Shown one piece after another: positions 2,709 to 50,571 of a stretch of 64,000 nucleotides of DNA (position 1 is its first letter; every line of letters starts with the position of its first letter). The position numbers were made by a program, and so were the translations under genes. The notes under the pieces were generated by a model that made no database searches, was not told where the DNA came from, and saw only the letters and a list, made by a program, of their open reading frames with translations. This DNA comes from Leptolyngbya ohadii IS1 (GTDB lineage Bacteria; Cyanobacteriota; Cyanobacteriia; Elainellales; Elainellaceae): assembly GCF_002215035.1 (NCBI RefSeq), contig NZ_NKFP01000004.1:1179726-1243725 (forward strand), read 5' to 3'.

Positions 2709-3959
2709 TTACTGGACGTTTAGCGGGGAGGTCAGGCGCAGATCCAGATCGGTGTCGGGACTGATGGATAGGAGGGTAACTCGATTGCGTCCCAGGAAGA
2801 GTCCCGCCAGGGCACCCGCTGCACCTCCACCCAGCACTTCTTCGGTGGCGATCGCCTCATCTCCAGTGACGGCGGCAATTCCGGCTGCGGCTCCTGCGCC
2901 TAAAGCGGCTCCTGCTAATAGCTCCAGCACGTTGGCTCCGCGAGTAACAGTTTCAGTGGTGGTGACGATCGAGGAAGTGGCGCTAATGGGGAAGCGATTG
3001 CCGTTGGTGGTAATGACTTCGCTGGCGTAGAACTGTGCCCCACCCTGTACGGCTCGGAGTTCGCCGGATACACGGCTACCCGCAGGAATCAGGACTCTGC
3101 CGTTTTGCGCCACGATATCTCTGGAAACGGTGAGGGTCAGCGGTACGGGTTCCGGTTCTTCGGGCGAGATGTAGATTTTATCGGCGCTGTCGTAGCGAAC
3201 AGGAATGGTGATTCCGGTGGGAATCTGGACTCCGCCCGTCACAGGGGGTGTGGGTGTAACGGCTTGACCGACGACGTAGGGGGATTGGATTGCCGCAACT
3301 TGCCCCGAACTGACCAATGCCTGATAGATGAAGGCTGCGACTTCTGCACGGGTTGCCGATCGATTCGGGTTTAGGACGCGCACGTCGGGATAGTTCACCA
3401 CAATGCGCTTTTCCGTCGCGGCGGCGATGCTGTTTTTCGCCCAGTCGGGAACTGCGCCAGCGTCGTTGTAGGTTCGTAAAGTGTTGTCTACGGCATTGAC
3501 TGCGTTATAGCCCAATCCGTTCGACAGCGAAACCAGTACCTGGGCACGGGGAATGTTCTCATCCGGACGGAAAACGTTTTCGGGATAGCCAGATAGGAAT
3601 CCGGTCGTGTAGGCTTCTCGAATCGCTGCGGCTGCCCAGTAATCCGACGGCACATCCATAAAGTTATTAGCTTCCCGGACGGCTGCTCTGCGGAATGCCT
3701 GACGAACCATCGCGGCAAACTGGGCACGAGTTACCGGATCGTTGGGGCGGAACGTACCATCGGGAAAACCGCTGAGAATACCGCGATTTGCCAGTTCACG
3801 AATGAAAGGACGTGCCCAATAATCGGACGACACATCCGAAAAGGAAGTAGCCTGTGCCTGGGCGGGAATCTGGATGACGATCGGGGCAGCAGCACCTGCA
3901 ATTACAGCCAGAGCGGTTAAAGCGGCAGTACCCGACTGCCATGCGTGGAAGCGTGACAT
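2709..3959 (-). CDS. SLH-domain envelope protein with VirB10/TrbI-like C-terminus
   Basis: A 416-residue exported protein. The signal peptide spans about residues 1-36 and ends in AQAQA. Three S-layer homology domains follow at about 40-90, 100-150 and 163-215; they bind peptidoglycan-linked polymer. After a Pro-rich linker, residues 250-416 contain a beta-rich segment (VLIPAGSRVSGEL, GNRFPISA), a glycine-zipper hydrophobic stretch (GAALGAGAAAGIAA) and a DLDLRL ending, all reminiscent of the VirB10/TrbI C-terminal barrel; that likeness is inference. The start is ATG 3959, with AGAGGA upstream; an in-frame GTG 17 codons earlier would spoil the signal peptide. Unlike cyanobacterial SLH porins it is short and lacks a large barrel. 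Confidence 0.8.
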   Translation of the reverse strand: MSRFHAWQSGTAALTALAVIAGAAAPIVIQIPAQAQATSFSDVSSDYWARPFIRELANRGILSGFPDGTFRPNDPVTRAQFAAMVRQAFRRAAVREANNFMDVPSDYWAAAAIREAYTTGFLSGYPENVFRPDENIPRAQVLVSLSNGLGYNAVNAVDNTLRTYNDAGAVPDWAKNSIAAATEKRIVVNYPDVRVLNPNRSATRAEVAAFIYQALVSSGQVAAIQSPYVVGQAVTPTPPVTGGVQIPTGITIPVRYDSADKIYISPEEPEPVPLTLTVSRDIVAQNGRVLIPAGSRVSGELRAVQGGAQFYASEVITTNGNRFPISATSSIVTTTETVTRGANVLELLAGAALGAGAAAGIAAVTGDEAIATEEVLGGGAAGALAGLFLGRNRVTLLSISPDTDLDLRLTSPLNVQ

Positions 3960-20461: not shown

Positions 20462-21379
20462 ATGCTGCAATACAACCGCCTGCATCCGCTGCCTTCGGCA
20501 GAAGAACTGCCCTGCTCCGACGATACGCCTGTGGATAACGAACTCCAAAACCTGATTCCCAACCTGCTGGAAGAACTGCTGACGGTGATCTGGGCAGAGC
20601 GACAGGACTGGTTTTTTGGCGTGGATATGGGCATTTACTACGCCCCCAGCAAACCCGCGATCGTCCCAGACGGATTTTTGAGCCTTGGAGTCGATCGGTT
20701 TATTCACGAAGAAGGCAGGCTCAGCTACGTGCTGTGGGATGAGGATGATGTGATCCCGATTTTTGCGCTGGAAGTCGTCTCACGCACCTACGGACGGGAA
20801 TACGAGGAGAAAAAGCAGCTTTACGCTGAAATTGGCGTTCTCTACTATGCCGTCTACACACCCAGTCGCCGCTATCGCAAAAATCGACAACCCCTGGAAG
20901 TCTATCGGCTGGAAGGCGAAGAGTATGTGATGCTGCCCGGAGAGCAAGTTTGGATGCCGGAAATCGGACTGTCGATCGGGCGGGAGCGGGGCACATTTCG
21001 GGGACGGAATCGCGAGTGGCTGTACTGGTACGACGAGCAGGGACAACGTTGGCTCACCAGTGAAGAGAAAGCGATGCAGGAACGGCAACGGGCAGAACAG
21101 GAACGCCGCAAAGCCGATCGAGAGCAGCAACGGGCAGAACAGGAACGCCAACGAGCTGAGGAAGAACGGCAACGCGCTGAGCAGGAAAGCCTGAGAGCTG
21201 AGCAGGAAAGCCTGAGGGCTGAGCAGGAAAGCTTGAGAGCCGAACAGGAGCGGCAACGGGCAGAACAACAACAGCAACGCGCAGAGGAAGAACGCCGGAG
21301 AGCTGAGGAAGAACGACAGAGAGCCGATCGCCTTGCGGAACGTTTGAGACAGCTTGGCGTTGATCTAACTGATTTGTAG
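20462..21379 (+). CDS. Uma2-family protein with coiled-coil tail
   Basis: A 305-residue protein. Residues about 20-190 form the Uma2 (DUF820) restriction-endonuclease-like fold, with KPAIVPDGFLSLGV and the downstream EVVSRTYGREYEEKKQLYAEIGVLYYAVY giving the usual D...ExV...K arrangement of a PD-(D/E)XK core. From about residue 200 the chain is a long charged coiled coil of AEQERQRAE/AEQESLR repeats, likely a trimer or dimer stalk. Uma2 genes are strongly expanded in filamentous cyanobacteria; nuclease activity has rarely been shown and the biological role is unknown. A second Uma2 gene is at 45182-45745. Confidence 0.85.
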   Translation: MLQYNRLHPLPSAEELPCSDDTPVDNELQNLIPNLLEELLTVIWAERQDWFFGVDMGIYYAPSKPAIVPDGFLSLGVDRFIHEEGRLSYVLWDEDDVIPIFALEVVSRTYGREYEEKKQLYAEIGVLYYAVYTPSRRYRKNRQPLEVYRLEGEEYVMLPGEQVWMPEIGLSIGRERGTFRGRNREWLYWYDEQGQRWLTSEEKAMQERQRAEQERRKADREQQRAEQERQRAEEERQRAEQESLRAEQESLRAEQESLRAEQERQRAEQQQQRAEEERRRAEEERQRADRLAERLRQLGVDLTDL

Positions 21380-43787: not shown

Positions 43788-44948
43788 TTATTTGAGCGGT
43801 CCGCCCAAAATCGTTTTGGCGATCGAATCTGTAACATCGGTTGGCTTTTCGGTGGCAAGCTGGTCGTACCACTGGCGGGTAATGTCGGGGTCTTTGCCGT
43901 GGATTTGCTCGGCGCGTTTGCGGGCTTTTTCAACGATCGCGCAGGTGCGGGCGTGGCGTTCGGCTTCGTAGCGTTGGAGGGCATCCTGAACACTGACATT
44001 CGTGGTAAGGAGGAACTGGGTTAGCACATAGGCATCCTCCATTGCCTGACAGCCTCCCTGACCCAGATCGGGACAGGTGGCATGGGCAGAATCACCCAGC
44101 AGGGCAACCCGTCCGCGCACCATGCGATCGATCGGTCCGACGTCGTGAATCAAAACGCGATTGGTGGTTTCGGGGTCGAGTCGTTCAATCAGTCTTTGCA
44201 CCGGACCTGCCCAGCCGAGGAAGAACTGCGATAAGTCCGATCGAATGTCGCCCAGTTCGGGGGTCTTCTCTTTAGGCATCGGCACATCGAAGAAAAAATA
44301 GAAGCGGTTGCCTGCAACGGGCATCATGGAAGCTCGCTTGAAGTCGCCCACGTAGATCGCCCAGGTGTCTGCCGGAGCCAGATCCTCGCTGATGGGAACC
44401 AAGCCGTTCCAGTTGACATAGCCCCCATACTCTGGCTCTACCGGATAGCCCAGCACATACTCCCGCAACACCGATCGCACGCCATCCGCCGCAATCACCA
44501 GATCACCCGTCGCCCGATGTCCGTCCTCAAAGGTGGCAGTGACTCCGGTTTCCGTTTCCTCTACGCCCACACAGCGAGAATTCAGCTTTACCTCGCCCGG
44601 AAAGGCATCCAGCAGCATTCCCTGAAGATCGGTTCGCGCCACAGGGTAGGGTCGCTGTCCCACCGTCTGAACCAGGGGATTCAAGTCGATCGCATTCAGC
44701 AAATCTCCATTCTGGGTGCGGTACTCCATGCGATCCATCCTGCCGCCGATCGATGAGACTGCCCCCCCTAACCCCAGGGAGTTCAAGACCTTAATGCCGT
44801 TTGACCAGACGGAAATTGCTGCCCCTGCTGGACGCAGTTCTCGGACGCGATCGTAAATTTCCACCTCAAACCCGGCACGACTAAGAGCAACCCCTGCGGT
44901 AAGTCCGCCAATTCCCGCCCCGATTATGACAACTTTTAGCTGCTGCAT
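43788..44948 (-). CDS. hpxO: FAD-dependent urate hydroxylase (HpxO type)
   Basis: A 386-residue flavoprotein monooxygenase. The FAD Rossmann motif is GAGIGGLTAG (10-19), with the second DG motif LVIAADGVRS and the GD motif GDSAHATCPDLGQGG at about residue 285. Overall text matches HpxO, which oxidises urate to 5-hydroxyisourate with NADH and O2, replacing cofactor-free uricase. The next two genes on the strand, uraH and uraD, catalyse the next two steps, which makes the assignment strong. The start ATG 44948 is the natural one. Promoter presumably in the 233 bases before the Uma2 gene. Confidence 0.92.
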   Translation of the reverse strand: MQQLKVVIIGAGIGGLTAGVALSRAGFEVEIYDRVRELRPAGAAISVWSNGIKVLNSLGLGGAVSSIGGRMDRMEYRTQNGDLLNAIDLNPLVQTVGQRPYPVARTDLQGMLLDAFPGEVKLNSRCVGVEETETGVTATFEDGHRATGDLVIAADGVRSVLREYVLGYPVEPEYGGYVNWNGLVPISEDLAPADTWAIYVGDFKRASMMPVAGNRFYFFFDVPMPKEKTPELGDIRSDLSQFFLGWAGPVQRLIERLDPETTNRVLIHDVGPIDRMVRGRVALLGDSAHATCPDLGQGGCQAMEDAYVLTQFLLTTNVSVQDALQRYEAERHARTCAIVEKARKRAEQIHGKDPDITRQWYDQLATEKPTDVTDSIAKTILGGPLK

Positions 44949-45872: not shown

Positions 45873-47312
45873 ATGGTTGCAGCACAAGAACCGCAGGAAA
45901 TACCACTCGATCGATCGCTCAGTTTCACGATTAATAGCGCTCGGGTGTCGCTAAAAGGCGTTTCGCCTGCCATGACTCTGCTGGAATACCTGCGGCAAAG
46001 CGGAAGGGTCGGCACAAAGGAAGGCTGTGGCGATGGAGACTGTGGAGCCTGCACGGTAGCGATCGTGGCGGAAGGAGCAGACGGCAAGCCTCACTATCAG
46101 GCGGTGAATAGCTGTCTGATTCCGATCGGTTCTCTCGCAGGACGGCAGGTCATCACGGTCGAAGGCATTGCAAATGGGTCGCTCCATCCCGTTCAACAGG
46201 CGATGGTGGAATTGGGCGGATCGCAGTGTGGCTACTGTACCCCCGGATTCATCATGAGTTTGTTTGCGGCTTATTACGATCGCACGGTGGACGATGTAGC
46301 GGTGGAAGGCAATCTCTGTCGCTGTACAGGCTATCTGCCAATTCGACGGGCAGCACAGCAGGTTGCACAACTCGAACCCGCCGATCACTTCTCGGAAACG
46401 CTGGCGACAGCCCCCACGACGCTAGAACCCGTTCGCTATACCGACTTTGAGCATCAGTTCTTTCGCCCGACCCAGCTTCAGGAGGCGATCGATCTGTTGC
46501 AGCGTTACCCGGAGGCGGTTCTGGTGGCAGGCGCGACCGATCTGGGACTAGAGATGAGCCACCATCGGCAGACTTTCCCAATCCTGATTTCCCTGGAAGC
46601 CGTCAGCGAACTAAAGCAGATTCAGCAAACGCCCGAATCTATCGAAATAGGAGCAGCCGTTCCCCTAAGCCAGATCGAAACCCAGCTTCACGGCATCTTT
46701 CCCAGCCTGGATGAAATGCTCCACTGGTTCGCAGCAAGACAGGTTCGCAATCGGGCGACGATCGGCGGCAATCTAGGAACAGCGTCTCCGATTGGCGATT
46801 TACCTCCCGTCCTGCTGGCTCTCGATGCAGAAGTACAAATTACGGGTATTAATGGCAATCGATCGCTTCCCCTCGTCCAATTCTTCAAAGGCTATCGTCA
46901 GACCGAGCTTCAGCCCGGAGAAATTATTCGATCGGTTAGAATCCCCCGTCAGATCACTCCTGGCGCAGTTCGTCGCCTCACCCAGTCTTACAAAATCGGC
47001 AAACGCGGCACAGACGATATCAGCATCGTCGCGGCATCCTTCACGATCGACCTGGACGCACAAGATCAAATTCTCCACGCAAGACTGGCTTATGGCGGCG
47101 TAGCGGCAACCCCCGTGAGGGCGATCGCAGTCGAACAGCAGCTCATCGGTCAACCCTGGACAAGAGCAACAATCCAAGCCATCAAACCCTCCCTCCGAGA
47201 AACCTTTACCCCCCTCACCGACCTCCGAGGCAGCGCAGACTACCGCAAACTCCTAGTCGCCAACCTCTTCGAGAAATTCTTCACCGAAATGCAACAACGT
47301 ACCCCCCTCTAA
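45873..47312 (+). CDS. xdhA: Xanthine dehydrogenase small subunit (FeS and FAD domains)
   Basis: A 479-residue XdhA. The N-terminal [2Fe-2S] domain has C52, C57, C60 and C81 (EGCGDGDCGACTV), the second helical domain has C119, C122, C149 and C151 (SQCGYCTPGF, NLCRCTGY). The FAD domain (about 185-475) has VLVAGATDLGL and RNRATIGGNLGTASPIGD. It passes electrons from the molybdenum site in XdhB to NAD+ during oxidation of hypoxanthine and xanthine to urate. Start ATG 45873 has AGGGGA upstream. The reading frame is intact, but pieces of it (46881-47130 and 47222-47283) are copied in the spacer before xdhB. Confidence 0.96.
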   Translation: MVAAQEPQEIPLDRSLSFTINSARVSLKGVSPAMTLLEYLRQSGRVGTKEGCGDGDCGACTVAIVAEGADGKPHYQAVNSCLIPIGSLAGRQVITVEGIANGSLHPVQQAMVELGGSQCGYCTPGFIMSLFAAYYDRTVDDVAVEGNLCRCTGYLPIRRAAQQVAQLEPADHFSETLATAPTTLEPVRYTDFEHQFFRPTQLQEAIDLLQRYPEAVLVAGATDLGLEMSHHRQTFPILISLEAVSELKQIQQTPESIEIGAAVPLSQIETQLHGIFPSLDEMLHWFAARQVRNRATIGGNLGTASPIGDLPPVLLALDAEVQITGINGNRSLPLVQFFKGYRQTELQPGEIIRSVRIPRQITPGAVRRLTQSYKIGKRGTDDISIVAASFTIDLDAQDQILHARLAYGGVAATPVRAIAVEQQLIGQPWTRATIQAIKPSLRETFTPLTDLRGSADYRKLLVANLFEKFFTEMQQRTPL

Positions 47313-47634
47313 TCGACTCTCCCCCTCCGAGGCAGCGCAGACTACCGCAAACTCCTAGTCGCCAACCTCTTCGAGAAATTCTTCAAAGGCTATCGTCAGA
47401 CCGAGCTTCAGCCCGGAGAAATTATTCGATCGGTTAGAATCCCCCGTCAGATCACTCCTGGCGCAGTTCGTCGCCTCACCCAGTCTTACAAAATCGGCAA
47501 ACGCGGCACAGACGATATCAGCATCGTCGCGGCATCCTTCACGATCGACCTGGACGCACAAGATCAAATTCTCCACGCAAGACTGGCTTATGGCGGCGTA
47601 GCGGCAACCCCCGTGAGGGCGATCGCAGGCGGGA
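47313..47634. repeat. Mosaic duplication of xdhA pieces before xdhB
   Basis: Segment 47324-47385 is a 62-bp exact copy of 47222-47283 (3' end of xdhA). Segment 47379-47628 is a 250-bp exact copy of 46881-47130 (middle of xdhA). The two copies join at the shared 7 bases TTCTTCA. The second copy ends right after a HIP1 octamer (GCGATCGC at 47619-47626) and is fused to the shortened xdhB. The copies carry no usable XdhA reading frame. The arrangement is either a microhomology-driven rearrangement or an assembly error. Confidence 0.95.
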
Positions 47635-49887
47635 ATGCTCTCCCTTTATCCGGTGCTGTCTCCCCACGCCAGGGCAAAGATTACCCGAATTGAGGTCAGT
47701 GCTGCCTATGAAGTGGAAGGGGTTGTCACGGTTCTGACGGCTGAAGACGTACCGGGGGCAAACGATACGGGGGCGATCGTCCAGGATGAGATTCTGTTTC
47801 CCACGGAGGAAGTGAGCTATTGGGGACAGGCGATCGTCTGGGTGGCAGGAGAAAGCGAAGAAGCTGCCCGACTGGGAGCCGCAAAGGTGGTGGTCGAATA
47901 TGAGCCGCTAAAGCCGATCTGCACCGTAAAAGAGGCGATCGAGGCAAACAGCTTCCACAATGCGCCGCAAATTATTCGCCGGGGCGAACCAGCAACCGCC
48001 CTTCAGCAGGCAGAAATCGTCCTGGAAGGCGAAATCGAAATGAACGGGCAGGATCATTTTTACCTGGAAACGCAGACGAGCTGGGCAATCCCGGACGGAG
48101 AGGGACACTACCATGTCTATTCGTCAACGCAGCATCCCTCGGAGACGCAAATTATCGTGGCGCGGGTATTGGGCGTTGCCAGCAATCAAGTAACTGTCAC
48201 CTGCTTAAGAATGGGCGGCGGCTTTGGCGGCAAGGAAACCCAGGCAAATCCCTTTGCGGCGATCGCGGCAGTAACGGCTAAAAAAACAGGTCGTCCGGCA
48301 AAAGTAAGGCTGCGGCGACACCAAGATATGATCCTCACCGGGAAGCGGCACGGTTTTTTGGGGCAATACTGCGTCGGCTTTACCTCAGAAGGTTTGATCA
48401 CCGCTTTGGATGTGGATCTCTATGCGGACGGAGGCTGGAGCCTGGATCTATCGCCGCCTGTGCTGCTGCGGGCAATGCTGCACGTCGATAACGCCTACTA
48501 TTTGCCAAACGTAGAAGTACGCGGACGCATCGCCAAAACCCACAAGGTTTCTAATACAGCATTTCGCGGCTTTGGTGGACCTCAAGGCATGATCGTGATC
48601 GAAGAGATTATCGATCGCATCGCCCGCAAGCTAAACCTCCCGCCTGACCTGATTCGCGAACGCAATTTTTATCAGGAGGACAGCGAAGACCGCGAGAAAA
48701 ATATTACCCACTACGGACAGGAAATTATCGATAACCGAATTCTGCGCGTCTGGAGCGAGGCAAAAACCCGATCGAACTACACAGAACGGCAAGCGGAGAT
48801 CGAAGCCTTCAACCAATCTCACGAAGACCGCAAGCGAGGACTGGCAATCACTCCGGTTAAGTTTGGCATCTCGTTCAACAAAACTCAGTACAACCAGGCA
48901 GGCGCACTGCTTCTCATCTACACCGACGGCAGCATCCAGCTCAACCACGGCGGTACAGAGATGGGGCAGGGACTCCACACCAAAATGATTCAGGTTGCCG
49001 CAAAATCTCTGGGCGTGAAACTCGATCGCTTCCGCGTCATGCCCACCAGCACCGATAAAGTGCCCAACACCTCCGCCACCGCAGCCTCTAGCGGTTCCGA
49101 CCTGAACGGGCAAGCGGTCAAAGATGCCTGCGAAACGATTAAATCTCGATTGGCGGTCGTTGCTGCCAAGCTGCTCAACCTCGACGCACCGGAAGACCTG
49201 GACTTTGCCGAAGACGCGATCTTTTGCCGCAGCTATCCGAATCTGCGAATCGACTTTGATACCGTTGTCCGTCATGCCTACAACGATCGCATCAGCCTCT
49301 CCGCCACAGGCTATTACCGCACCCCCAATATCTTCTGGGATGCTGAAAAAGGACGGGGCAGACCGTTCTATTACTTTGCCTACGGAGCAGCAGTCAGCGA
49401 GGTAGAGGTAGATGGCTTCACGGGCACCTTCAAGCTGCGTCAGGTGGACATCGTGCATGACGTGGGCGAATCCCTCAACCCGCTGATTGATATCGGTCAG
49501 ATCGAAGGCGGCTTTGTGCAGGGTATGGGCTGGCTAACGATGGAAGAACTCGTGTGGGACAGAGAAGGACGGCTGCGAACCTTTGCCCCCAGCACCTACA
49601 AAATTCCTACGATTAGCGAAATCCCCGAACGCTTCCAGGTTCATCTCCTCCAACGCGCCGCCCAGAATGGCGTAATCTACGGCAGTAAAGCCGTTGGCGA
49701 ACCTCCCTTCATGCTGGCAATGTCCGTCCGGGAAGCCATTCGCGCAGCCGTCGCCGCCTTTGGCAATACCCATGCCGTTCTGCTCGCAGCCCCCGCCACC
49801 CCCGAAGCGACTCTATGGGCGATCGAAGAAATCAAAGCCAATTCCGCCCAATCCGCCGATCGCCTCCCAGCCCTCTCCCTGGAGTAG
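47635..49887 (+). CDS. xdhB: Xanthine dehydrogenase large (molybdenum) subunit, N-terminally shortened
   Basis: A 750-residue molybdopterin subunit. The molybdenum-binding motifs are intact: GGGFGGKET, AFRGFGGPQG, GGTEMGQGLHTK and the catalytic-Glu motif AVGEPPFMLA near the C-terminus. The family normally opens with about 30-35 residues containing HDSAxxHVTGxAxYxDD; here the protein begins at MLSLYPVLSPHARAKITRI, so that part is missing. Upstream sequence is duplicated xdhA, not the lost codons. ATG 47635 is preceded by AGGCGGG, a weak ribosome site. The lost part forms the first strands of the fold, so activity is doubtful unless the sequence is misassembled. Confidence 0.9.
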   Translation: MLSLYPVLSPHARAKITRIEVSAAYEVEGVVTVLTAEDVPGANDTGAIVQDEILFPTEEVSYWGQAIVWVAGESEEAARLGAAKVVVEYEPLKPICTVKEAIEANSFHNAPQIIRRGEPATALQQAEIVLEGEIEMNGQDHFYLETQTSWAIPDGEGHYHVYSSTQHPSETQIIVARVLGVASNQVTVTCLRMGGGFGGKETQANPFAAIAAVTAKKTGRPAKVRLRRHQDMILTGKRHGFLGQYCVGFTSEGLITALDVDLYADGGWSLDLSPPVLLRAMLHVDNAYYLPNVEVRGRIAKTHKVSNTAFRGFGGPQGMIVIEEIIDRIARKLNLPPDLIRERNFYQEDSEDREKNITHYGQEIIDNRILRVWSEAKTRSNYTERQAEIEAFNQSHEDRKRGLAITPVKFGISFNKTQYNQAGALLLIYTDGSIQLNHGGTEMGQGLHTKMIQVAAKSLGVKLDRFRVMPTSTDKVPNTSATAASSGSDLNGQAVKDACETIKSRLAVVAAKLLNLDAPEDLDFAEDAIFCRSYPNLRIDFDTVVRHAYNDRISLSATGYYRTPNIFWDAEKGRGRPFYYFAYGAAVSEVEVDGFTGTFKLRQVDIVHDVGESLNPLIDIGQIEGGFVQGMGWLTMEELVWDREGRLRTFAPSTYKIPTISEIPERFQVHLLQRAAQNGVIYGSKAVGEPPFMLAMSVREAIRAAVAAFGNTHAVLLAAPATPEATLWAIEEIKANSAQSADRLPALSLE

Positions 49888-49981: not shown

Positions 49982-50571
49982 ATGTCCCTGGAATGCTTCC
50001 GCCAACTCGCCCAACTCCTCCCAGATACCCCCGCAGTCCTGGCAACCGTCATTAGCGTCCGAGGCTCTGTCCCGCGAGAAGCAGGCGCAAAAATGATTAT
50101 TTGTGACGATCGCACCTATTTCACGATCGGAGGCAGGACGCTCGCGAATGGGCAAACTCCGATCGCTATCCGCAGGCAAACCAGATTTTTCGAGAACCGA
50201 TCGCGCAAATCGTCGATCGCCTCAAATCCCACACCCACCTTTACGTTGCCTTAGTCACACGGGGCTATGCATTTGATCTGGAGGCGCTCACAGTCCTACT
50301 AAAACAGGAAGTTCCCTACTGCTACCTGGGCATGATCGGCAGCGAAAAACGAGTTCGTCAGGTGATCCAGGCGATTACCCCTTCGGGGGACTGCAAAGCA
50401 ACCGCTCAAGCAGGCATTCCCCTCGAAAAACTTAAAACCCTCTATGCCCCGATCGGCTTAGACATTGGCGCACTCACTCCCGAAGAGATTGCTGTCAGTA
50501 TTGTTGCGGAACTCATTATGGTGCGGCGCGGCGGCACAGGACAATCCATGTCTCACCGTTTGCGGTCTTAA
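49982..50571 (+). pseudogene. xdhC: XdhC-type Moco maturation factor, internally deleted and frameshifted
   Basis: The first 50 codons read as a normal XdhC start (LPDTPAVLATVISVRGSVPREAGAKM, FTIGG). At about 50130-50136 the sequence jumps into another frame that reads QDAREWANSDRYPQANQIF, YVALVTRGYAFDLEAL, YLGMIGSEKRVRQV and ends IVAELIMVRRGG, the normal C-terminal half, open to the stop at 50571. The segment between, with the rest of the first domain and most of the Rossmann fold, is absent; judged against usual XdhC length, 100-150 codons are lost. XdhC supplies sulfurated molybdenum cofactor to xanthine dehydrogenase. As it stands no complete product can be made. Confidence 0.85.

What the first reader, a model, noticed from the sequence alone, without database searches (positions are those of the whole stretch)
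46881..47700. Microhomology-joined mosaic of xdhA pieces that truncates xdhB
Two exact copies of xdhA DNA (62 bp from its 3' end and 250 bp from its middle) lie between xdhA and xdhB, in swapped order, joined at 7 shared bases (TTCTTCA). The second copy breaks off 2 bases after a HIP1 octamer and runs into xdhB, which lacks roughly 30-35 N-terminal codons. Exact identity of both copies means the event is very recent or is a misassembly. If real, it is a template-switching rearrangement with HIP1 at one breakpoint.
Basis: partly seen in the sequence, partly recalled or inferred. Interest (0 to 1): 0.8.

Follow-up and report, generated by a model that had tools for sequence, protein, structure and literature searches.

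The report
Probable assembly artefact breaking xdhB
The scrambled copy of xdhA that cuts off the start of xdhB is really in the sequence record, but the same kind of scramble with similar ~10-base joints turns up about 20 times in 1.26 million bases of this genome and even breaks its only vitamin B1 ring-making gene, so it is most likely a genome-assembly error rather than a biological rearrangement.

Summary
The mosaic exists as described, with corrections: a 62-bp and a 252-bp exact copy of xdhA sit in swapped order between xdhA and xdhB, sharing 9 bp (AATTCTTCA), not 7. The sister species has GCGATCGC at exactly the homologous place in xdhB, so the second joint runs HIP1 to HIP1. XdhB lacks 31 N-terminal residues present in the sister. 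However, surveying 1.26 Mb of the same contig gave about 20 such loci: local pieces of about 35-800 bp, direct and inverted. Their cores are practically identical (7 mismatches in 7,481 bp) and joint overlaps peak sharply at 10 bp. Nine contain near-perfect palindromes with arms over 120 bp. None occurred in 1.27 Mb from four relatives. One locus destroys the only ThiG, full-length in 20 of 20 relatives. Uniform zero age, near-fixed overlap and lost native sequence fit an assembly or gap-closing step; one published gap closer joins ends at a default 10-nt overlap. HIP1 needs no special role: CGATCG occurs in 8 of 32 joints, as among chance short repeats. Verdict: most likely a misassembly (about 0.8). 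A genuine recent burst of template switching cannot be excluded without reads.

The parts
45873..47312 (+). xdhA, intact, 479 aa (FeS + FAD subunit)
   Evidence: TIGR02963 505.8 bits over cut-off 467; Pfam Fer2, Fer2_2, FAD_binding_5, CO_deh_flav_C
46879..47130 (+). source of the 252-bp copy, inside xdhA
47222..47283 (+). source of the 62-bp copy, 3' end of xdhA
47313..47323 (+). 11 bases after the xdhA stop, the only remaining candidate native spacer; joint 1 follows
   Evidence: partner sequence lost, so the overlap at this joint cannot be measured
47324..47385 (+). 62-bp copy
   Evidence: 100% identical
47377..47385 (+). joint 2, 9 shared bases AATTCTTCA
47377..47628 (+). 252-bp copy
   Evidence: 100% identical
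47619..47628 (+). joint 3, GCGATCGC (HIP1) + AG; the sister xdhB has GCGATCGC at the same distance (8 nt) before the homologous ATG
47635..49887 (+). xdhB, 750 aa from first ATG, lacking 31 N-terminal residues
   Evidence: TIGR02965 profile positions 32-758 matched; Ald_Xan_dh_C from position 19 of 110
49982..50571 (+). xdhC remnant: about 0.4 kb internal deletion near 50131-50145, halves in different frames
   Evidence: sister XdhC is an open 327 aa

Best explanation
The mosaic is most likely an assembly artefact. The native sequence between xdhA and the HIP1 site of xdhB (intergenic spacer plus the first 31 codons; 139 bp from stop to HIP1 in the sister) was missing or unresolved. A contig-joining or gap-closing step bridged the hole with locally recruited sequence (62 + 252 bp of xdhA), accepting short chance overlaps of about 10 bases: AATTCTTCA and GCGATCGCAG. 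HIP1 was used because it is one of only three 8-mers shared by the two stretches. Shown: the copies, their identity, the joints, the lost xdhB start, the recurrence on the contig and the broken thiOG. Inferred: that software rather than the cell made the joints; which program is unknown.
For: (1) Recurrence: 30 direct and 46 inverted exact repeats of at least 40 bp within 5 kb on 1.264 Mb of the same contig, in about 20 loci; no such loci in 314 kb of G001, 160 kb of G014, 400 kb of G008 and 400 kb of G003, where repeats are tandem-like or single long pairs. (2) No age spread: 7 mismatches in 7,481 core bases; remaining mismatches cluster at segment ends. (3) Joint overlaps peak at exactly 10 bp (14 of 32; 9 bp in 4), although chance 9-bp matches are three times commoner than 10-bp ones. 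GapFiller closes a gap when the two extensions overlap by at least 10 nt by default (PMC3446322). (4) The same kind of mosaic (C4:1120038-1120603) breaks thiOG: ThiG matches only profile 52-247 and ThiO 1-327, while ThiG is full-length in 20/20 relatives; no other ThiG-like hit above 26 bits, and Thi4 hits are only ~40-residue nucleotide-binding fragments. (5) Nine near-perfect palindromes with arms of 122-338 bp and at most 4 bp spacer in this contig, none with arms of 50 bp or more in 1.274 Mb of controls, although SbcD is present. (6) Missing native pieces of xdhB and xdhC are found nowhere else in the genome.
Against: No reads were available. Several mosaic loci leave neighbouring conserved genes intact (a UbiA-family gene that looks like chlG, nadD, pncB), as selection on real events would. 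Nine of 32 joints share fewer than 10 bp, below a fixed 10-bp rule. Multi-piece loci need several joins, and the net length differs from the sister (306 against 139 bp here), so GapFiller at default settings, which checks gap length, would not do all of it. The xdhC deletion next door, without duplication, looks like ordinary gene decay. G001 is a draft of about 100 contigs and could hide such loci, though G003 and G008 are single-contig genomes.
Confidence: 0.79

Rival explanations
1. A genuine, recent genome-wide burst of template switching (serial slippage or microhomology-mediated break-induced replication) in this lineage, in which a 3' end re-anneals on about 10 bp of nearby homology in either orientation; at xdh it jumped back twice within xdhA and then forward from HIP1 to HIP1 in xdhB, deleting the native start.
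For: Microhomology at both measurable xdh joints, local templates, mixed orientations; xdhC in the same operon is also broken, which fits a dispensable operon; several loci spare conserved neighbours.
Against: Zero age spread, loss of the only ThiG, long near-perfect palindromes despite SbcD, sharp 10-bp mode.
Confidence: 0.13
2. The xdh mosaic alone is a real rearrangement in a decaying xdh operon, while the other loci are mostly assembly errors.
For: Two separate lesions (xdhB, xdhC) within 3 kb; all xdh pieces are direct, without fold-backs.
Against: Its joints (9 and up to 10 bp) and zero divergence match the other loci.
Confidence: 0.06
3. HIP1-specific recombination (a HIP1-recognising enzyme) made the event.
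For: HIP1 at the same place in the sister's xdhB and in the xdhA copy; literature links HIP1 to excision and site-specific recombination (PMC4390886).
Against: No full HIP1 octamer in the 32 measured joints (the xdhB joint itself is not among them, because its native partner is lost); CGATCG in 8/32, against 20-32% of chance 9-12-bp matches.
Confidence: 0.02
4. A special case of the artefact: chimeras from whole-genome amplification (phi29 MDA) that entered the assembly.
For: Local, often inverted joins with short overlaps resemble MDA chimeras (PMC1855051).
Against: MDA overlaps peak at 6 nt (PMC4595205) and direct joins within 10 kb are rare in MDA (11 of 348), whereas here the mode is 10 with many direct copies. 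Its share is counted inside the 0.79 of the artefact reading.
Confidence: 0.08

Closest known systems
Gap-closing misjoins in draft assemblies (for example GapFiller-type merging at a minimum overlap of 10 nt)
   Same: Joints of about 10 bp, exact local copies, native sequence replaced, no divergence between copies
   Different: Several pieces per locus and lengths that do not match the native gap; program and library for this genome unknown
phi29 MDA chimeras
   Same: Local joins with short overlaps, many inverted
   Different: Published overlap peak 6 nt and few local direct joins; here 10 bp and many direct copies
Serial replication slippage / FoSTeS / MMBIR complex rearrangements
   Same: Out-of-order local copies joined at microhomology with a flanking deletion
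   Different: All loci have the same zero age and a near-fixed overlap, and an apparently needed gene (thiG) is lost
HIP1-associated deletion in the metallothionein locus of Synechococcus PCC 6301 (Gupta et al. 1993, cited in PMC6331805)
   Same: A deletion-type joint at HIP1
   Different: HIP1 is not over-represented among the joints of this genome

Membership tests
Assembly / gap-closing artefact | Copies identical irrespective of locus (no age spread) | tested here: met
   7 mismatches in 7,481 core bases
Assembly / gap-closing artefact | Joints share a program-like minimum overlap | tested here: inconclusive
   mode exactly 10 bp, 14 of 32, but 9 of 32 lie below 10
Assembly / gap-closing artefact | Needed genes are broken too | tested here: met
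   only ThiG truncated, full-length in 20/20 relatives
Assembly / gap-closing artefact | Reads do not support the joints | not testable with these tools
   no reads held
Template-switching rearrangement (SRS/FoSTeS/MMBIR) | Out-of-order local copies joined at microhomology | tested here: met
Template-switching rearrangement (SRS/FoSTeS/MMBIR) | Events of different ages where the process recurs in a lineage | tested here: not met
   a single recent burst would escape this test
HIP1-directed recombination | HIP1 enriched at breakpoints over chance supply | tested here: not met
   CGATCG 8/32 against 20-32% background
Xanthine dehydrogenase XdhB | Full-length Mo-binding subunit | tested here: not met
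   matches TIGR02965 positions 32-758 only; N-terminus lost

The most novel reading that the evidence does not exclude
A cyanobacterium has undergone one recent genome-wide burst of local template switching primed by about 10 bp of homology (roughly 125 loci if the sampled contig is typical), producing direct and inverted mosaics, long palindromes and gene losses including thiG and xdhB.
Probability: 0.12. Interest if true: 0.75.

Novelty: not a real feature. Interest (0 to 1): 0.2.

Why it matters
If it is an artefact, about one locus per 60-65 kb of this assembly (on the contig sampled) is scrambled, and gene-loss calls made from it (thiamine synthesis, xanthine dehydrogenase) would be wrong. 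The signature (exact local copies, joints of about 10 bp, zero-spacer palindromes) gives a simple read-free screen for other public genomes. If instead it is real, it would be a striking chromoanasynthesis-like event in a bacterium.

Tried and rejected
SbcCD loss as the reason for palindromes: rejected, SbcD is present. A continuous birth and decay of duplications: first suggested by BLAST identities of 90-98%, rejected when mismatches proved to sit at segment ends. HIP1-specific recombination: rejected on background counts. Relocation of the lost xdhB start or xdhC middle elsewhere in the genome: not found; a 37-bp match of the sister's intergenic DNA on contig C6 is single-copy in each genome and unexplained. 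NadD as a broken essential gene: checked, it looks intact. GapFiller at default settings as the specific cause: not claimed, because gap lengths do not match.

Full report
What is in the sequence. Between xdhA (45873-47312) and xdhB lie two exact copies of xdhA DNA: 47222-47283 copied to 47324-47385 (62 bp), and 46879-47130 copied to 47377-47628 (252 bp). They overlap by nine bases, AATTCTTCA, not seven. The second copy ends with GCGATCGCAG and then runs into xdhB. The mosaic occurs once in the genome. All offsets are multiples of three, but the xdhA-derived frame is not the xdhB frame, so no fusion protein results; xdhB can start only at ATG 47635, because a TGA lies six codons upstream.

Comparison with relatives. 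The sister species (G001; a contig of the same length is named Cyanobacteria bacterium FACHB-502) has a normal junction: xdhA stop, a short spacer, then xdhB starting MPTGQRKSHESAVSHVSGKAVYTDDQRSLIG-MLSL. The window's XdhB begins at the MLSL, so 31 residues are lost, including a motif like HVSGKAVYTDD that is seen in the 37 relatives inspected. In the sister, xdhB has GCGATCGC exactly 8 nt before the homologous ATG, the same spacing as in the window. Joint 3 is therefore most likely HIP1 to HIP1, with 8 to 10 shared bases. Only three 8-mers are shared by the 3' half of xdhA and the sister's spacer plus xdhB start, and HIP1 is one of them. From stop to HIP1 there are 139 bp in the sister and 306 bp here.

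A second lesion. xdhC, downstream, has lost about 0.4 kb internally and its two halves are in different frames. Neither the lost xdhB start nor the lost xdhC middle is elsewhere in the genome.

Is it unusual in this genome? No. I joined 1.264 Mb of the same contig and looked for exact repeats of at least 40 bp within 5 kb: 30 direct and 46 inverted, gathered in about 20 loci of 0.3-3 kb, often with several pieces in both orientations. Samples of four relatives (314, 160, 400 and 400 kb) gave only tandem-type or single long repeats and no mosaics. G003 and G008 are single-contig genomes, so fragmentation does not explain their lack of such loci.

Real or assembled? Four features point to an artefact. 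First, age: the copies show no spread in age. BLAST identities of 90-98% looked like decay at first, but mismatches sit at segment ends; the cores hold 7 mismatches in 7,481 bases. Second, joints: 14 of 32 overlaps are exactly 10 bp, against 4 of 9 bp, although chance 9-bp matches are three times as common. A rule of at least 10 bases would give this; GapFiller, for example, closes gaps at an overlap of at least 10 nt by default (PMC3446322). MDA chimeras peak at 6 nt (PMC4595205). Third, gene damage: the mosaic at C4:1120038-1120603 lies inside thiOG; ThiG survives only from profile position 52 and ThiO to 327, while ThiG is full-length in 20 of 20 relatives, and there is no second ThiG or convincing Thi4. 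A photoautotroph without thiazole synthase would need thiamine from outside (established biochemistry). Fourth, nine near-perfect palindromes with arms of 122-338 bp and at most 4 bp between them, none with arms of 50 bp or more in 1.274 Mb of controls. From general knowledge such palindromes are unstable where SbcCD is active, and SbcD is present.

HIP1. Among the 32 measured joints, 8 contain CGATCG (25%); among chance 9-12-bp matches in 2-kb windows of this contig the share is 20-32%. HIP1 is thus one of the commonest available short matches, not a directed site. HIP1-linked deletion is already on record (Gupta et al. 1993, cited in PMC6331805) and links to recombination have been proposed (PMC4390886).

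Limits. No reads are held. Several loci spare conserved neighbours, 9 of 32 joints are shorter than 10 bp, and multi-piece loci and mismatched gap lengths do not fit a single default run of one program. The xdhC deletion may be genuine decay. Only one of eight contigs was surveyed. I therefore put the artefact at about 0.8 (amplification chimeras included), a real burst at about 0.13, and a real event at xdh alone at about 0.06.

Noticed in passing
C4:1119435-1121224 (window contig, outside the window; L170/L171): thiOG fusion gene broken by the same kind of mosaic; the only ThiG in the genome lacks its first 51 profile positions.
   Followed up: yes
C4:183765-185829, 209042-209749, 306627-308600, 509525-510624, 514052-515235, 529227-530441, 611119-612966, 635757-636546, 795999-797046, 804015-806875, 897899-898436, 912623-913485, 934190-936284, 1030462-1031696, 1102734-1103465: Other local mosaic loci with direct and inverted exact copies and joints of about 10 bp.
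   Followed up: partly
49982-50571: xdhC has an internal deletion of about 0.4 kb and a frame change; no local duplication there.
   Followed up: partly
L022 (G001) 3498-3534 and G000:C6:1937267-1937303: A 37-bp stretch of the sister's xdhA-xdhB spacer matches one place on another contig of this genome at 89%; the 25-bp core is single-copy in both genomes.
   Followed up: partly
43788-44948: Divergent gene next to xdh is an FAD-dependent urate hydroxylase HpxO (608.7 bits, cut-off 500), fitting a purine-breakdown cluster.
   Followed up: no
C4:618-1725 (L115): Dozens of scattered single N or ambiguous bases near the contig start.
   Followed up: no
21080-21331: 21/42-bp coding-type repeats rich in Glu/Arg/Gln codons.
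   Followed up: no
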